Assembly: GCA_000233775.1 (NCBI GenBank)
Contig: CP003096.1
Location: 1,700,501-1,764,500 of the forward strand
Direction: 5' to 3'
Length of the DNA stretch: 64,000 bases
Source of the DNA: Thermovirga lienii DSM 17291
Lineage (GTDB): Bacteria > Synergistota > Synergistia > Synergistales > Thermovirgaceae
In this document: in pieces, positions 13,419 through 29,187 of the stretch
Position numbering within the stretch: the first letter of the stretch is position 1
Layout of the letters: every line of letters begins with the position of its first letter
The notes under the pieces: model-generated
The model's input: only the letters and a program-made list of their open reading frames with translations
Database searches by the model: none
What the model was told of the DNA's origin: nothing
Made by a program: the position numbers and the translations under genes

Positions 13419-14201
<783 letters not shown>

Positions 14202-14417
14202 CTCTCTCACCCTCTCTTGGCGCAGCAGCACCAATCGGAAACTTCAGCTAACAACTTGTTAATATGTAAATTGGTACCCTTTTGCCTTTTTGTCTAGCCA
14301 AATACATTTGCCGCCTTTCGGCAGCCAAGTTGTTAAGATGTTCAACTGAATAATTTAGCCATACAATTCATTATAGCTCTGTTTTGCCATTCATGCAAAT
14401 ACCAAAATCCAAAATTA

Positions 14418-22351: not shown

Positions 22352-23296
22352 ATGAACCTGGACTATATAAAGGGGCACATGGGCGGCAACCTCATAATCC
22401 TCCTTGATGGCAGGCAGCTTCCACAAGAACCTCAAAGACAGCTTGAAGCAGCTTTAGAGGTTCTAGGACCTCTACGATTGCACGGGCATCAGGCTGGAAT
22501 TTTTACCCCCACTGACAAGCCCAGGACGCTCGGTGTAAAAATAGTGGACATAACCAACAGGGACTTCATACCAGCATGCGGTGGTCTGACGCAGGTGACA
22601 GGAAAGGCCTTGGCCACCACAAATTGGGCAAACCGCTTCAACGTCGAGAACACCTCTGACAACTTCTACGTAATCCTTGAAACGGACGCGGGGGAGACCA
22701 GGTTGGACATAATCACAAAAGAAGAAGGGATAACAACTTACACCGACATGAGCTCTTTTGCAGAGCTGTTGCGCTCCATAGGCATACATAAAATCGAAGT
22801 GGATGGAATTTCGGTATTCCGCTCCGGCTACTATCTGGTGGCGGACGCAGAAGAAATACGCAAAGCCTTCCCCAAGGCCAATTTTGAGAGTATGGACCCC
22901 TTCTCTGTAGAGGTTCTATCCAACCTACAGAGTAAATATCAAGAAGCGACAGGTACCTCTAACTTACATTTTTGCCTTTATGACAACAGGACTGAAAAAG
23001 AGGGACATTTAAGAGCAGTATATCCCCACAGCGTGCAGGAAGGTCATATTGAACCTGCATGCGGAACGGGAAGTGTTGCTTTAGCCATGGCTCTCTTGAT
23101 GACGGACGAAGGACAAAGATTGGGCTTGAGCGATGGTAAATCCATAAATGTGACTCTGGAAACCGGAGGTAAGCCTGTTTTAGGAGGTCCAGACGAAACA
23201 ACCGTTGTAATATCCATTGAAAAAGACTCCCGAATAAAGGCAACCTTCAGTCACAGTCTCGTGGAGATAACCTCACAAGGAGTTGTTTTCGTATGA
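22352..23296 (+). CDS. Diverged DapF-fold (diaminopimelate epimerase-like) protein, copy 1
   Basis: About 314 residues from the ATG at 22352 behind AGGAGGAATAATA. It has the two-Cys pattern of PLP-independent racemases: 'FIPACGGLTQ' (Cys76) in the first half and 'IEPACGTGSVALA' in the second, but the PH and Glu elements of true DapF are absent or moved and the N-terminus lacks 'K..GnGNDF'. It is thus a distant member, an isomerase or racemase of an unknown amino or organic acid. Two closer DapF homologues follow at 41 bp and then 13 bp, so the three are probably one operon. Confidence 0.7.
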   Translation: MNLDYIKGHMGGNLIILLDGRQLPQEPQRQLEAALEVLGPLRLHGHQAGIFTPTDKPRTLGVKIVDITNRDFIPACGGLTQVTGKALATTNWANRFNVENTSDNFYVILETDAGETRLDIITKEEGITTYTDMSSFAELLRSIGIHKIEVDGISVFRSGYYLVADAEEIRKAFPKANFESMDPFSVEVLSNLQSKYQEATGTSNLHFCLYDNRTEKEGHLRAVYPHSVQEGHIEPACGTGSVALAMALLMTDEGQRLGLSDGKSINVTLETGGKPVLGGPDETTVVISIEKDSRIKATFSHSLVEITSQGVVFV

Positions 23297-23336
23297 TCAA
23301 GCAACTCTTGTCGCCTTAGATCATGGAGGTGCACCT

Positions 23337-24182
23337 ATGAAATTCACAAAAATGCAGGGCAATGGCAATGACTTCATAATTTGGGACAACAGGGAAGCAA
23401 AGCTATCCCTGGACGAAATACAAAAGACGGCCATAAAGCTATGCAGGAGGCGCCTCTCTCTTGGTGCCGACGGCCTCGTTGTTATAGACGTTCCCCACAA
23501 TGAAGACTCCTCTTTCAGCATGCGCCTTTTCAACAGGGACGGCTCAGAAAGTTCCTTTTCCGGCAACGCGGCAAGATGCGCTGCGAGGTTCGCCTGTGAA
23601 AATAAAATAGCAGGTGCGGAAATGACCTTCGACACCACGGGAGGCACCATCAAGGCCATTGTCGAGGCTCCTTTCGTAACCCTAGAACTTGGAGAACTGG
23701 ACACGAAAAATATCGTCTTGGACGCAAAGTTCACCTACATGGACGAGACTTTACCAGTAAACTACATGCATCTTGGGTGGCCCAAGAGCGCCCCTCATTG
23801 TGTGGTGTTTTTGGAGAAAAACGACTGGCGCCCCATGGAGAGCCTGGCATCTTTCGCCAGAGCGATACAGAAGGACAAGGAGTTGTTCCCTGAAGGGGTG
23901 AACGTGAACTTCCTAAAAATACTGGATCATTACGCCATGGAAGTCTACACCTACGAAAGAGGGGTAGATGATTTCACCCTTTCTTGCGGGAGCGGCTCCG
24001 TTGCTGCGGCAGTGGCAGGATGGATAAATGGCTGGTGTGATTCTCCAGTAGAGGTTTACAATCCTGGTGGAACGAACATCGTCATAATAGAACCAAAAGA
24101 TAACGATAAACTCCTCTCGGTGAAGCTCAGGGGAAAAGCGTCCTTGATAGCTGAAGGGTCCATATTCCCAGAAGCCTTATAG
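23337..24182 (+). CDS. DapF-like protein, copy 2, with Ser in place of first catalytic Cys
   Basis: 281 residues from the ATG at 23337 (GGAGG nine bases before). The family frame is intact: 'FTKMQGNGNDFIIWDN', 'RRLSLGADGLVVID', 'SAPHCVVFL' (His), 'YERGVDDFTLSCGSGSVAAAV' (Glu and second Cys). The first catalytic motif, CGNGAR in active enzymes, reads SGNAAR, with Ser75 where the base Cys should be. A two-base racemase would be crippled by this, so it may have a one-base reaction, bind without turnover, or work with its paralogue. Confidence 0.85.
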   Translation: MKFTKMQGNGNDFIIWDNREAKLSLDEIQKTAIKLCRRRLSLGADGLVVIDVPHNEDSSFSMRLFNRDGSESSFSGNAARCAARFACENKIAGAEMTFDTTGGTIKAIVEAPFVTLELGELDTKNIVLDAKFTYMDETLPVNYMHLGWPKSAPHCVVFLEKNDWRPMESLASFARAIQKDKELFPEGVNVNFLKILDHYAMEVYTYERGVDDFTLSCGSGSVAAAVAGWINGWCDSPVEVYNPGGTNIVIIEPKDNDKLLSVKLRGKASLIAEGSIFPEAL

Positions 24183-24193
24183 GAGGAAAGGAC

Positions 24194-25015
24194 ATGGAGC
24201 TTAAGTTCTCAAAGATGAACGGAAACGGCAACGATTTCATAGTCATAAACAACATGGACCTATCTGTAGACCCAGCTTACATGGGGTCTTTGGCGAGGCA
24301 ATTGTGCAAAAGAAGGTTCTCCATAGGAGCAGACGGTCTCATATCCATCGAGCCATCAAAAGATGCCCACTTCACCATGCACCTTGTAAACAGCGATGGT
24401 TCCTTGGCTGAAATGTGCGGCAACGGCGCAAGGTGCGCCGCTCTTTACGCCTTCAAAATGGGCATTGCACCTAGAAACATGACCTTTTCAACCCCTGCAG
24501 GCAATATAGAAGCCAGCATCACCCCTAACGGCGTATCTATTTCCATGGGAAGGCTCTCCCTAGAAGGTGTCACACAAGAGCAATCAATGACGGTGGAAGG
24601 GCAAAACATTGTTTACTGGCACCTGACCGTAGGGGTCCCGCATACTGTCATATTCTTACCAACCTCGGCTCCTCAAAGTAAAGAAGCGTTACGAGAACTA
24701 TCCATCGCCATACAGGGCGACATAAAAAGATTTCCTCACAGCACTAACGTAAACTACGTCAAGTTATACAAGGACAGCCTACATACCCTGACCTTCGAAA
24801 GGGGAGTAGGAGATTTCACACTATCCTGCGGGACAGGCTCCATAGCTTCTGCCGTAGTAGCTTGGCTAAGAGGAATGGTAAAGCCGCCTGTTAAGGTACA
24901 AAATCCAGGCGGCGTAAACTTGGTGCACTTCAAAGAAATTCAAAAAAACCTCTTAAAGGTGTCGTTGGAAGGACCTGCTGAATTTTCATTTGAGGGAGTG
25001 GTTACAATAGAGTAA
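24194..25015 (+). CDS. DapF-family amino-acid epimerase/racemase, copy 3, complete active site
   Basis: 273 residues. Both catalytic cysteines are present: 'EMCGNGARCAALYAF' (Cys75) and 'FERGVGDFTLSCGTGSIASAV', with His in 'VGVPHTVIFLP'. It could be the cell's diaminopimelate epimerase (meso-DAP for peptidoglycan and lysine). However, its place in a triple cluster with aminotransferases also allows another amino acid, as in histidine racemases of this fold (CntK, HisR). Start follows TAGGAGGAAAGGAC. Its end overlaps the convergent aminotransferase by 14 bp. Confidence 0.85.
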   Translation: MELKFSKMNGNGNDFIVINNMDLSVDPAYMGSLARQLCKRRFSIGADGLISIEPSKDAHFTMHLVNSDGSLAEMCGNGARCAALYAFKMGIAPRNMTFSTPAGNIEASITPNGVSISMGRLSLEGVTQEQSMTVEGQNIVYWHLTVGVPHTVIFLPTSAPQSKEALRELSIAIQGDIKRFPHSTNVNYVKLYKDSLHTLTFERGVGDFTLSCGTGSIASAVVAWLRGMVKPPVKVQNPGGVNLVHFKEIQKNLLKVSLEGPAEFSFEGVVTIE

Positions 25016-26153
25016 CACGTCCAACGTTTGCTTCCTCCAGCTCTCTCAAGTACGAAGACAGCCCCTCCAGGCCCTTCTTCAGGGTTTCCTTGCCGTAGGC
25101 GTAGCCTATTCTCAGCCAGTTCTCCCTATCAAAACACTTTCCAGGCACCAAGAATGTGCCATTTGTCCTGAAAAGGTCTATGCAGAACTCCTCTGATGGC
25201 TTGGCGTAGTCATAGAACAAAAATCCCGTCGTCCCTGCCTTTGGCCTAACCCACTTGATTCTCTCTTCGCTTTTCACCCAACTATCTACTATCTCAACGC
25301 TTTCTCTAACTATGGAGAGGTTCCTGGCCAAAATTTTCTCCTTGTTCTTTAAGGCCACCAAAGCCAAGGCCTCATCAATCTGGCCACAACTTATGGTAGT
25401 GTAATCTCTCCGCAATGCACACTCCCTTATGAAATCACTGGGCCCCGCCACCCATCCCAATCTCAATCCTGCAAGGGAGAACACCTTTGACATGCTCCCC
25501 GTGACAACTGCTTTTTCATATATGTCAACCATAGAGGGAACTTTATCCTCTTCCTTATGCTCCAACCCTCTGTAAGCCTCGTCGCACAATATCCACGCGC
25601 CTTTCTGTCTTGCCAGCTCAGCTATGTTCTCCATAAGGGCTCGATCAATAAGTGCTCCCGTAGGATTATTGGGATTGTTCAGTATTATTAGGTCCACTCC
25701 GTCCCTGCAAAGTCTTTCTAGCTCCTCCATGTCTGGTAAAAAATTATTTTCTGGCTGCAACTCAAGAAGTTTGACACAAGCTCCAAAAGCCTCCGGCAAG
25801 CTGTAAAGTTGTTGATAAGTGGGAGCCACGCTTACAACCCTGTGCCCCGGCTCGACCAAGGTAAACAGGGCAAGGAAATTAGCTGAAATGCCACCTGTGG
25901 ATGTCAAAATGTTTTCTGGCTTAACGGACTCGTACAGTGAGCTGATTAGCTCCTTGAGTTGCGGATGGCCATGTATATTGCCGTAGGTTACCCGCATGCT
26001 TGTTATATCTTTTAGGATCTTTTCCTTTTCGCCAGAGAGCTCCAACAGTTCCTCCACCGTAAGAGAATCGACGCAGGTCTCTGCGATATTGTAAACTGCC
26101 TCCATCTCGTATTTGTTCATCCACTCTTCGACCCCAAAAGGCTTGATTTTCAT
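25002..26153 (-). CDS. PLP-dependent aminotransferase, class I/II
   Basis: About 383 residues from the ATG at 26153, behind AGGTGGGG; GTG 26165 is possible but worse placed. Fold type I motifs: 'LTSTGGISANFLALF', 'ILNNPNNPTGALID' (Asn binding PLP ring), 'WILCDEAYRG' (Asp), 'VTGSMSKVFSLAGLRLGW' (PLP Lys and phosphate Arg) and 'NWLRIGYAYG' (substrate carboxylate Arg). It transaminates or lyses an amino acid not identifiable here. Convergent with the DapF cluster and divergent from a second aminotransferase. Confidence 0.85.
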   Translation of the reverse strand: MKIKPFGVEEWMNKYEMEAVYNIAETCVDSLTVEELLELSGEKEKILKDITSMRVTYGNIHGHPQLKELISSLYESVKPENILTSTGGISANFLALFTLVEPGHRVVSVAPTYQQLYSLPEAFGACVKLLELQPENNFLPDMEELERLCRDGVDLIILNNPNNPTGALIDRALMENIAELARQKGAWILCDEAYRGLEHKEEDKVPSMVDIYEKAVVTGSMSKVFSLAGLRLGWVAGPSDFIRECALRRDYTTISCGQIDEALALVALKNKEKILARNLSIVRESVEIVDSWVKSEERIKWVRPKAGTTGFLFYDYAKPSEEFCIDLFRTNGTFLVPGKCFDRENWLRIGYAYGKETLKKGLEGLSSYLRELEEANVGRVTLL

Positions 26154-26279
26154 GGTCAACCCCACCTTTTTGCTGTAATATTAGTTATAACAAAGTATGC
26201 ACTATCCCTTCCTTGTGGTCAAGGGTGACAACTTTAAACTCTATAATATGATAAGTTTTTAACAAAGGAGGAGCATGGC

Positions 26280-27512
26280 ATGTCAATAAAATGGGATGAA
26301 CATTTCAATAAAAAAACAAACGAAAGGCTAATCCTTTCCACTATAGGCGAAATGATGCGCCTAGCATCGGAAGAAAACGCCCTATCTCTTACTGCCGGCG
26401 AGCCTTACGACCTTCTCTACCCTTCTGAAGCTCTCAAGAGAGCCTTTGAAAAAACCTTGAACGGCAACCTGGTTTCTCACTTTTCTTATAGCAATGAGAG
26501 AATGGGAATTTACCCCCTTAGAAGCTGGATAAAAAAGTGGATGGCTGATGAGGGGCTCCTTCCTTCTTGGGTGACGGAAGAGAACATATTCATAACCAGC
26601 GGTTCCCAGGAAGGCCTGAACTTCGTAACGGAACTATTGCTGGAGGAAGGACAAACCATTCTTGTAGAATCCCCCACATATCCGGAAGCTTTGCTGGTTT
26701 TCACCAAGGAGGGAGCTCGCTTCCTCGAGGTCCCATTGGAGGAGGACGGTCCAAACATTGAAGCGTTTAAAAATTTGCTCAAAAAAGAAAGAATTTCCTT
26801 TTTCTACTCTATAGTCAACTATCAGAATCCAACAGGATACTCCACTAGCGCACAAAAGAAGAAAGCTATACTGGAATTGGCAAGGGAACACAATTTCTTA
26901 ATAATAGAGGACGACCCGTACCATCACCTTTACTACGATGCGCCACCTGAAAAATCTTACCTTTCCCTAGCGGGTGAAGACTGTCGAGTTATATATCTAG
27001 GAAGCTTTTCCAAGATCGTAGCCCCTGGCCTTCGAACAGGATGGGTAGTAGCTCCAAAGGAAGTCATAGATCAAATGTTGAAGCTGAGGGTTCTATCAAC
27101 CTTGTGCCCCCAGACCCTTCCTCAAGAAGCGCTATTTAATTTCCTCCAAGAGACCAACATACCTGAATACCTGTCTAGTTTGAGGCACGCTTACAGACGG
27201 CACAGGGACGCCATGATAGAGGGCCTCGAAAAGTACGTAAAACCCCTAGGCCTTTCTTTCCAAATCCCAAAAGGAGGCTTTTTCATATGGGGGCGCATAC
27301 CCATGATCAAAGACATGCATGACTTCGCAAGATTTTGCATAATGGAAGAAAAGGTTGCCTTCATCCCTGGAGACATTTTCTTTGCTGAACCTTCCAATGG
27401 GAAGGACACCATAAGGTTTTCCTTCGCCAAAACGCCCCCCGAAAAGGCCATAGAGGGATGCAGGAGACTTGGCTCCGCACTGAAAAAATATCTTGAACAA
27501 CTCCAAAACTGA
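26280..27512 (+). CDS. PLP-dependent aminotransferase, 2-aminoadipate/LysN type
   Basis: 410 residues. Motifs: 'ITSGSQEGLNFVTELLL', 'VNYQNPTGYSTS', 'IIEDDPYHHLYYD', 'YLGSFSKIVAPGLRTGWV' (PLP Lys) and 'TIRFSFAKTPPEKA'. The pattern is that of the MocR-like/LysN aminotransferases, which use aromatic, branched or 2-aminoadipate substrates with 2-oxoglutarate. Start follows AAAGGAGGAGCATGGC. The next gene, a RocB-like peptidase, begins 19 bp after the stop, so the two are probably cotranscribed. Confidence 0.88.
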   Translation: MSIKWDEHFNKKTNERLILSTIGEMMRLASEENALSLTAGEPYDLLYPSEALKRAFEKTLNGNLVSHFSYSNERMGIYPLRSWIKKWMADEGLLPSWVTEENIFITSGSQEGLNFVTELLLEEGQTILVESPTYPEALLVFTKEGARFLEVPLEEDGPNIEAFKNLLKKERISFFYSIVNYQNPTGYSTSAQKKKAILELAREHNFLIIEDDPYHHLYYDAPPEKSYLSLAGEDCRVIYLGSFSKIVAPGLRTGWVVAPKEVIDQMLKLRVLSTLCPQTLPQEALFNFLQETNIPEYLSSLRHAYRRHRDAMIEGLEKYVKPLGLSFQIPKGGFFIWGRIPMIKDMHDFARFCIMEEKVAFIPGDIFFAEPSNGKDTIRFSFAKTPPEKAIEGCRRLGSALKKYLEQLQN

Positions 27513-27531
27513 TACGCAGGAGGCCTCAACC

Positions 27532-29187
27532 ATGAAGGTAAGCACAAAAGGAGAAGATCTTTACCGATTTCTATTGGAGCTTGTCCGTATTCCAAGCGTA
27601 TCCCCCGGAGCGGAGGAAAACAGGATAGCCAACTTCATAAAAGGGGTGCTGCAAGAAACGCCATATTTTAAGGAACATCCCCAGGACTTAATGTTAGTCC
27701 CCATGGAAAGGGATCCCTTCGGAAGACATATCCTCTTTGCCGTTGTAAGGGCCAAACCAGAAACAAGCAATACCCTTATCCTGATGGGACATATGGACGT
27801 AGTGGATACCAGCGCCTGTGGCACTCTCAAAGACCTGGCCTTTGATCCAGAACAATACACCAAGGAAATTAGAAAAATAAATCTTCCGCCAGACGCCAGA
27901 AAAGACTTGGAATCCGGCGAGTGGCTCTTTGGGAGAGGCATCTCAGATATGAAAGGTGGCATTGCCACAGGAGTAGCCATGCTGTGCGAAGCCGCTTGGG
28001 GCAACTTCTCCCCAGGGGTCAACCTTGCGGGGTTGTTCGTCTGTGATGAGGAAAACAACTCCGGAGGTATGTTAAGAGCCGTTTCTCTGCTTGCAGACCT
28101 TCAGGAAGAAGGCCTCAAGTTTTCAGGATGCATAGACCTTGAACCCACCTTTGCAGGGGGAGGCGAAGGAGGACCTTCCATCTACCTGGGCAGTATAGGC
28201 AAGATAAACCCATTTTTCTATTTTGTTGGTAAGGAAACCCACGTGGGAGAGTACTACGAGGGGCTAACCGCTGCTTCAATGGTATCCCAACTGAATGTAA
28301 TCCTAGATGGAAACCCGAAGTTCGCAGACCAACTGGAGGGCATATCCTACCCCCCATATGGGTGTATGCGGCAGGTAGACCTTAGGCGGGAATATTCCGC
28401 GACCATAATGACCAAGGCGATAGCTTTCTACAGCTATCTAACCGCCTCCAAAATGCCCAGAGAGATCATGGAGGAGATACTCCACCTCTCACTTGAGGCA
28501 CAACGCAGGGCCACAGAACAATACGAAAAATATGCAAAGGAGTACATTGAAAGAAACGGATCTGGAGGCACCATAAAAAAATGGGAACCCAAGGCCTTCA
28601 CATATGGGAAGCTTTTTTCCATGGCAAGGGAGAAACTGGGGGAACAAAAATTGAAAAAGCTAATTGAAGAAGCTCTGGGGGGATGCCCCAAAGGCAGCGA
28701 TGAGCGCGAGAAAGCCTTTGCCATGATAGAGGCCATAGCCGAAGAATTGGATATACAACCTCCATTCTCAGTGGTAGGCATCCTTCCGCCATGGTACCCT
28801 CACAGAACTAACCTATGCCGAAACAAGGGGGAAAAGCTTATGCGACAAACCGCCCAGGTCGTGGCTACAGAGGCTCAGAGCAAATTCGGGGTGAATTTGA
28901 AGATAAGAAAAATGTTTGAAGGCGTGTCTGACCTCAGTTACTGCGGCTTCGAGGGATGTGCCGAGGACATGGAAGCGGTAAGAGACAACCTGCCAGGCTG
29001 GGGAGAACTTTACGATTTCCCAGGAGAAGCTCTATTGAAGCTGGATATACCAATTTTGAGCTTCGGTCCCCATGGAAAGGATGCTCATAAGAACACTGAA
29101 CGAATACATGTTCCCTATTTCCTGGAAGTTTATCCCCAATTGTTGAAAAAGGCCATTGATACCATCGCTGAACTGTCAACTGTTTAA
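27532..29187 (+). CDS. M20 metallopeptidase, RocB-like
   Basis: About 551 residues from the ATG at 27532, eight bases after an AGGAGG; the longer ORF starts inside the aminotransferase gene. Metal ligand motifs are intact: 'LILMGHMDVVD' (His, Asp), 'FGRGISDMKGGIATG' (Asp), 'LFVCDEENNSGG' (Glu-Glu) and 'HGKDAHKNTERIH' (last His). Length and order match RocB, tied to arginine/ornithine use in Bacillus. Here it follows an aminotransferase, so a role in amino-acid catabolism is likely, but its substrate is not known. Confidence 0.85.
   Translation: MKVSTKGEDLYRFLLELVRIPSVSPGAEENRIANFIKGVLQETPYFKEHPQDLMLVPMERDPFGRHILFAVVRAKPETSNTLILMGHMDVVDTSACGTLKDLAFDPEQYTKEIRKINLPPDARKDLESGEWLFGRGISDMKGGIATGVAMLCEAAWGNFSPGVNLAGLFVCDEENNSGGMLRAVSLLADLQEEGLKFSGCIDLEPTFAGGGEGGPSIYLGSIGKINPFFYFVGKETHVGEYYEGLTAASMVSQLNVILDGNPKFADQLEGISYPPYGCMRQVDLRREYSATIMTKAIAFYSYLTASKMPREIMEEILHLSLEAQRRATEQYEKYAKEYIERNGSGGTIKKWEPKAFTYGKLFSMAREKLGEQKLKKLIEEALGGCPKGSDEREKAFAMIEAIAEELDIQPPFSVVGILPPWYPHRTNLCRNKGEKLMRQTAQVVATEAQSKFGVNLKIRKMFEGVSDLSYCGFEGCAEDMEAVRDNLPGWGELYDFPGEALLKLDIPILSFGPHGKDAHKNTERIHVPYFLEVYPQLLKKAIDTIAELSTV

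What the first reader, a model, noticed from the sequence alone, without database searches (positions are those of the whole stretch)
22352..25015. Three consecutive DapF-fold genes, only one with an intact two-cysteine active site
Seen: copy 1 is distant (CGG and CGTGS cysteines but no DapF His/Glu frame), copy 2 has Ser75 for the first catalytic Cys (SGNAAR), copy 3 is complete (CGNGAR and CGTGS). Known: DapF uses two cysteines as acid and base; relatives racemise histidine (CntK) and other amino acids. Inference: a cluster for amino-acid racemisation beside two aminotransferases and a RocB-like peptidase. Copies 2 and 3 could form a heterodimer, or copy 2 may have a one-base reaction.
Basis: partly seen in the sequence, partly recalled or inferred. 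Interest (0 to 1): 0.7.

Follow-up and report, generated by a model that had tools for sequence, protein, structure and literature searches.

The report
DapF operon with serine-for-cysteine paralogue
A heat-loving bacterium carries, next to its normal cell-wall enzyme DapF, a close but probably inactivated copy and a third, more distant two-cysteine relative of an undescribed family, all three intact and conserved, so this looks like duplication and re-use of a racemase fold rather than decay.

Summary
Three consecutive same-strand genes of the DapF superfamily are real (22352-25015; gaps 40 and 11 bp; each with a GGAGG ribosome site). The genome size, its two contigs and the named sister contig (Thermovirga sp.) point to Thermovirga.
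Copy 3 is the ordinary DapF. The genome has dapB but no detected lysA, so meso-DAP probably serves peptidoglycan.
Copy 2 is a Thermovirga-only DapF paralogue. Ser75 replaces the first catalytic Cys (codon TCC in both species), Cys217 is kept, and most DAP-binding residues are kept. It is under purifying selection.
Copy 1 is not defective, contrary to the finding's title. It belongs to an unnamed racemase-like family (54 loci among 84,980 species) in which both cysteines are invariant (47/47), each at a helix N-terminus as in DapF, but the DAP-specific residues are absent.
Best reading: copy 3 epimerises DAP, copy 1 is a PLP-independent two-Cys racemase for another substrate, and copy 2 is a DapF-derived ligand-binding pseudo-epimerase, perhaps a partner of copy 3. 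The last two are inferred.
Serine-substituted DapF paralogues recur in the phylum, including DapF domains fused to carbamoyl-phosphate synthase. A new variant of a known kind; moderately interesting.

The parts
22352..23296 (+). Copy 1: distant DapF-superfamily protein (314 aa), C76 and C237, undescribed two-Cys racemase-like family
23337..24182 (+). Copy 2: DapF paralogue (281 aa) with Ser75 (TCC) for the first catalytic Cys and Cys217 kept; 4-residue insert before the PH motif
23559..23561 (+). Ser75 codon TCC in SGNAAR (position computed from the start at 23337 and residue 75; codon read)
24194..25015 (+). Copy 3: complete DapF (273 aa; C75, C212)
25002..26165 (-). AT_A: class I/II aminotransferase (NF005593/PRK07324, 492 bits over cut-off 476), next to dapF in relatives
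26280..27512 (+). AT_B: PLP aminotransferase, no equivalog above cut-off among the rows shown
27493..29187 (+).

Best explanation
The three genes form one operon-like unit built from one fold with three fates. Copy 3 is the cell's DAP epimerase: C75 and C212 act as acid and base on LL-/meso-DAP for peptidoglycan (family-level evidence; activity inferred). Copy 1 is a cofactor-independent two-cysteine racemase/epimerase acting on an amino acid or derivative other than DAP, because the thiol pair and carboxylate-binding helix ends are conserved while the DAP distal-end residues are not (substrate unknown, inferred). Copy 2 arose from DapF in the Thermovirga lineage, lost the first catalytic thiol (Cys to Ser) but kept the fold, Cys217 and most of the DAP pocket. 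It most likely no longer epimerises DAP at a useful rate and works as a DAP-binding pseudo-epimerase, for example as a non-catalytic partner that tunes copy 3 in a mixed dimer, as dimers are the active form of DapF (the non-catalytic role is inferred; the partner is a guess).
For: Copy 3: TIGR00652 201 bits, all DapF motifs; dapB present and no lysA detected. Copy 1: invariant C76/C237, GxMxGGN, E234-P and GGP-type motifs in 47 sequences; AF2 pLDDT 96, cysteines at helix N-termini; Z 24-28 to proline racemase, HypE and HisR; profile link to DapF E 6e-8 and to HisR 9cr1 E 4e-4. Copy 2: Ser fixed in both species, purifying selection, pocket residues N13, N68, H156, N191, N193, E209, R210, C219 (numbering of the translated reference, ATG numbering plus 2) kept; long stem (0.85) then short tips in the tree. 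Cys-to-Ser greatly reduces turnover in the relative HisR (PMC11602996). The Asn that positions the catalytic Ser in Ser-type proline racemase superfamily members (+3 from Ser; PMC4113996) is Ala in copy 2 (SGNA). Precedent for non-catalytic DapF: the C73A/C217A E. coli protein still binds and stimulates RppH, and DapF is a dimer (PMC4227774). Ser-substituted DapF domains recur in the phylum.
Against: No activity, binding or complex was measured. A Ser/Cys pair can epimerise in the proline racemase superfamily (a 4-hydroxyproline epimerase; PMC4113996), so lost activity is not proven. No complex prediction was possible. Copy 2 is known from only two genomes. Copy 1's neighbours differ widely between lineages, so no substrate is supported.
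Confidence: 0.45

Rival explanations
1. Copy 2 is an active Ser/Cys epimerase or racemase with its own substrate or direction: Cys217 as one base, and Ser75 or water, helped by the helix dipole, as the other acid/base.
For: Ser/Cys pairs catalyse 4-hydroxyproline epimerisation in the proline racemase superfamily (PMC4113996). Ligand-binding residues are kept and selection is purifying. In the model Ser sits at the same helix N-terminus (helix 78-90).
Against: The Asn +3 motif of Ser-type enzymes is absent (SGNA). Cys-to-Ser mutants of HisR lose most turnover (PMC11602996).
Confidence: 0.3
2. Copy 2 is a one-base elimination or exchange enzyme: Cys217 removes the alpha proton and a beta leaving group departs (dehydratase or lyase), as in the Thr-type hydroxyproline dehydratases.
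For: Cofactor-independent racemases with Cys-to-Ser changes eliminate beta-substituted substrates (glutamate racemase mutants, PMC8142540); t3HypD has one Cys replaced (PMC4113996).
Against: No beta-substituted natural substrate is indicated by the neighbourhood, and the DAP pocket is kept.
Confidence: 0.1
3. Copy 2 (and copy 1) are decaying duplicates.
For: Copy 2 lacks the first Cys and has a long stem branch.
Against: No stops; good ribosome sites; dN 0.13-0.18 with saturated dS; 79% (copy 2) and 74% (copy 1) identity between species, as high as intact copy 3 (74%); copy 1 cysteines invariant across phyla.
Confidence: 0.04
4. Copy 1 is not a racemase but an isomerase or dehydratase of the same superfamily (PrpF, LigU or t3HypD like).
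For: Fold matches also include LigU, PrpF and t3HypD.
Against: Two invariant cysteines at both helix ends fit 1,1-proton transfer; closest sequence match in the PDB is histidine racemase.
Confidence: 0.2

Closest known systems
Diaminopimelate epimerase DapF (TIGR00652; e.g. 8qzy, 1gqz)
   Same: Copy 3 fully; copy 2 in fold, length, Cys217 and most pocket residues
   Different: Copy 2 has Ser for the first catalytic Cys, Ala for Gly at +3, CGSG for CGTG and a 4-residue insert; copy 1 lacks the DAP distal-end residues
Histidine racemase HisR (F. nucleatum, 9cr1) and CntK
   Same: Copy 1: two-Cys, DapF-fold, best PDB sequence match
   Different: Copy 1 is only about 18% identical over the aligned core; it is about 45 residues longer; substrate unknown
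Proline racemase / 4-hydroxyproline epimerase superfamily, including Ser/Cys members
   Same: Copy 1 fold (Z up to 27.8); precedent for Ser in the first Cys position of copy 2
   Different: Copy 1 has no PF05544 hit and its homologues fall below the cut-off; copy 2 is a DapF by sequence and lacks the Asn that positions the catalytic Ser
E. coli DapF as non-catalytic activator of RppH
   Same: Precedent for a DapF role without catalytic cysteines
   Different: There one gene product does both; here a separate Ser paralogue exists

Membership tests
DapF (copy 3) | TIGR00652 equivalog score over cut-off (114.65) | tested here: met
   201.3 bits
DapF (copy 3) | Both catalytic cysteines with CGNGAR and CGTGS | tested here: met
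DapF (copy 3) | DAP epimerase activity | not testable with these tools
   needs assay or complementation
DapF (copy 2) | TIGR00652 score over cut-off | tested here: met
   189.7 bits
DapF (copy 2) | First catalytic Cys (E. coli C73) | tested here: not met
   Ser75, TCC, in both species. Not filed as a functional DapF, only as a DapF-derived paralogue
DapF (copy 2) | Second catalytic Cys and the pocket residues N, N, H, E, R | tested here: met
   the Asn at E. coli 157 is replaced in most DapFs of the phylum aligned here, including copy 3
Ser-type proline racemase superfamily (copy 2) | Asn at +3 that positions the catalytic Ser (PMC4113996) | tested here: not met
   SGNA: Ala at +3
DapF (copy 1) | PF01678 / TIGR00652 match | tested here: not met
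   no match
DapF-fold two-Cys racemase superfamily (copy 1) | DapF-like fold with a Cys at the N-terminus of each central helix | tested here: met
DapF (copy 1) | DAP distal-end residues (E208-R209, N64) | tested here: not met
   not conserved at the aligned positions
Proline racemase PF05544 (copy 1) | score over gathering cut-off (27 bits) | tested here: not met
   no hit for copy 1; three homologues 18.7-22.2 bits
Histidine racemase (copy 1) | racemises histidine | not testable with these tools
   only a weak sequence match, E 4e-4 over partial stretches

The most novel reading that the evidence does not exclude
In Synergistota the DapF fold has repeatedly been turned into a non-catalytic ligand sensor by loss of the thiols: as a free subunit that pairs with and regulates the intact DapF encoded next to it (Thermovirga copy 2), as the separate Ser/Gln paralogue of G015/G032, and as a C-terminal domain of carbamoyl-phosphate synthase; and copy 1 is a new racemase family with an unrecorded substrate.
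Probability: 0.25. Interest if true: 0.7.

Novelty: new variant of a known kind. Interest (0 to 1): 0.45.

Why it matters
Cofactor-independent racemases depend on a thiol pair. A naturally fixed Cys-to-Ser DapF encoded 11 bp upstream of an intact DapF offers a clean test of whether Ser/Cys DapF proteins are enzymes, regulators or mixed-dimer subunits. Copy 1 marks a small, widely scattered family, without a Pfam or NCBIfam model of its own, that should make or use a D-amino acid in anaerobes.

Tried and rejected
Decay of copies 1 and 2: rejected. Copy 1 as a defective DapF: rejected. A second standard dapF elsewhere in the genome: not found. Copy 2 as plain sister of copy 3 by tandem duplication: neither shown nor rejected (the free tree places it elsewhere weakly; AU p 0.31). 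Substrate of copy 1 from gene neighbourhoods: tried on 54 loci; contexts vary (serA-like and threonine synthase-like genes, read by eye from the sequences, in Syntrophomonadaceae bins; peptide ABC transporters, amidohydrolases, Asp/Glu-racemase-like and saccharopine-dehydrogenase-like genes elsewhere; arginine deiminase-like genes in four), so no substrate is claimed. Copy 1 or 2 as the missing glutamate racemase: no MurI above cut-off, only an Asp/Glu-racemase-like gene, and a D-amino-acid-transaminase-like gene below cut-off; left open, since most relatives lack both copies. Tree runs failed twice before FastTree and treekit succeeded. The organism name was inferred, not given by a tool.

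Full report
What is there. The window is 1.70-1.76 Mb on a 1,967,774-base contig of a two-contig, 1,999,646-base genome. Three genes follow one another: copy 1 22352-23296, copy 2 23337-24182 and copy 3 24194-25015. Gaps are 40 and 11 bp, and a GGAGG motif precedes each start. In the sister species (G001) the same order holds, with identities of 74, 79 and 74%.

Is it more than chance. Copies 2 and 3 are the only PF01678 proteins of the genome and both pass the DapF equivalog cut-off. Copy 1 has no family hit, but its homologue profile finds histidine racemase weakly (E 4e-4), aligns to the DapF profile (E 6e-8), and its model (pLDDT 96) matches proline racemase, hydroxyproline epimerase, DapF and HisR at Z 22-28. 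Between the two Thermovirga species dN is 0.18, 0.13 and 0.19 for copies 1-3, while synonymous sites are saturated or nearly so: all three are under purifying selection.

Copy 1. Homologues occur in 14 of 185 genomes of the phylum and at 54 loci in 84,980 species: Synergistota, Syntrophomonadaceae bins, Bipolaricaulota, Chloroflexota, others. In 47 aligned sequences C76 and C237 are invariant, with GxMxGGN, CGG-TQV, EP-CGTG and E-GG. Both cysteines sit at helix N-termini, as in HisR (PMC11602996). So the statement that only one copy has an intact pair is wrong. The DapF residues that hold the far end of DAP are not conserved, so DAP is an unlikely substrate. Gene neighbours vary and give no single substrate.

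Copy 2. It is found only in the two Thermovirga genomes; other genera of the family have a complete DapF at this place, after a PAS/GAF-domain gene that Thermovirga lacks here (G002 on one contig; G003, G006 and G007 in fragments). Ser75 (TCC) is fixed in both species. The pocket is otherwise kept, with Gly-to-Ala at +3, CGSG for CGTG and a four-residue insert before the PH motif. Copies 2 and 3 fall inside the Thermovirgaceae DapF group (99/98, together with one DapF of family f7); a common tandem origin is not rejected (AU p 0.31), and the copy 2 stem is long (0.85) with short tips, which fits a burst of change and then constraint. In the related HisR, Cys-to-Ser mutants lose most turnover (PMC11602996), yet Ser/Cys members of the proline racemase superfamily epimerise hydroxyproline and hold their Ser with an Asn three residues on (PMC4113996). 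Copy 2 has Ala there. This leans towards a non-epimerase role but does not prove it. DapF is known to act without its cysteines as an RppH activator, and to be dimeric (PMC4227774).

Copy 3 and the pathway. Copy 3 has every DapF feature tested. The genome has dapB, DapL-like aminotransferases below cut-off and no lysA hit, so DAP is probably made for peptidoglycan.

A wider pattern. Two other genomes (G015, G032) carry a second DapF with SGNGAR and YQRNV in place of YERGV, on a separate branch. At least 25 genomes carry a carbamoyl-phosphate synthase large subunit (shown by family scan for two, inferred from the long open frame for the rest) with a C-terminal DapF domain, mostly with both cysteines changed to Ser (six with Gly for the first Cys); eight of 17 such genomes tested have no dapB hit (several of them incomplete). 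Loss of catalytic thiols with retention of the fold is thus recurrent in this phylum. A paper search for the two enzyme names with 'fusion' found nothing relevant.

Shown versus inferred. Shown: gene structure, residues, conservation, selection, fold. Inferred: every enzymatic activity, the pseudo-enzyme role of copy 2, any dimer between copies 2 and 3, and any shared pathway with the aminotransferases and M20 peptidase.

Noticed in passing
L092:3052-7143 (+), L093:4061-8218 (-), and loci L170-L176, L178-L196, L198: Carbamoyl-phosphate synthase large subunit fused to a C-terminal DapF domain in at least 25 Synergistota genomes (family scan done for two); catalytic cysteines mostly both Ser (MSASA / ASGSG), in six Gly for the first; several of these genomes have no dapB or separate DapF hit. 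Possibly a repurposed allosteric domain.
   Followed up: partly
L090:6915-7832 and L091:2350-3258: Second DapF paralogue in G015 and G032 with SGNGAR (Cys to Ser) and Gln for Glu in the ERG motif; the next gene on the other strand is a GAF-GGDEF protein.
   Followed up: partly
L081:1519-2616 and L079:203-1282: A PAS/GAF-domain protein sits between copy 1 and dapF in other genera of the family, in the slot taken by copy 2 in Thermovirga.
   Followed up: partly
window 13419-14234 (-): Reading frame with a run of dozens of aspartates followed by a Gly/Asn/Pro-rich tail.
   Followed up: no
L109:6820-7212 and 11 further loci: Small protein with a weak LysW-like zinc ribbon match and a ferredoxin-thioredoxin-reductase beta-like part, just upstream of the copy 1 homologue in Syntrophomonadaceae bins.
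   Followed up: no
own genome C1:1648846-1649817 (L202): A true proline racemase family gene (PF05544, 367 bits) lies about 51 kb upstream of the window start.
   Followed up: no
own genome C1:22993-23382 (L169): No MurI above cut-off; the only Asp/Glu-racemase-like gene has NTAH (Thr) at the first catalytic site, so the source of D-glutamate is unclear.
   Followed up: partly
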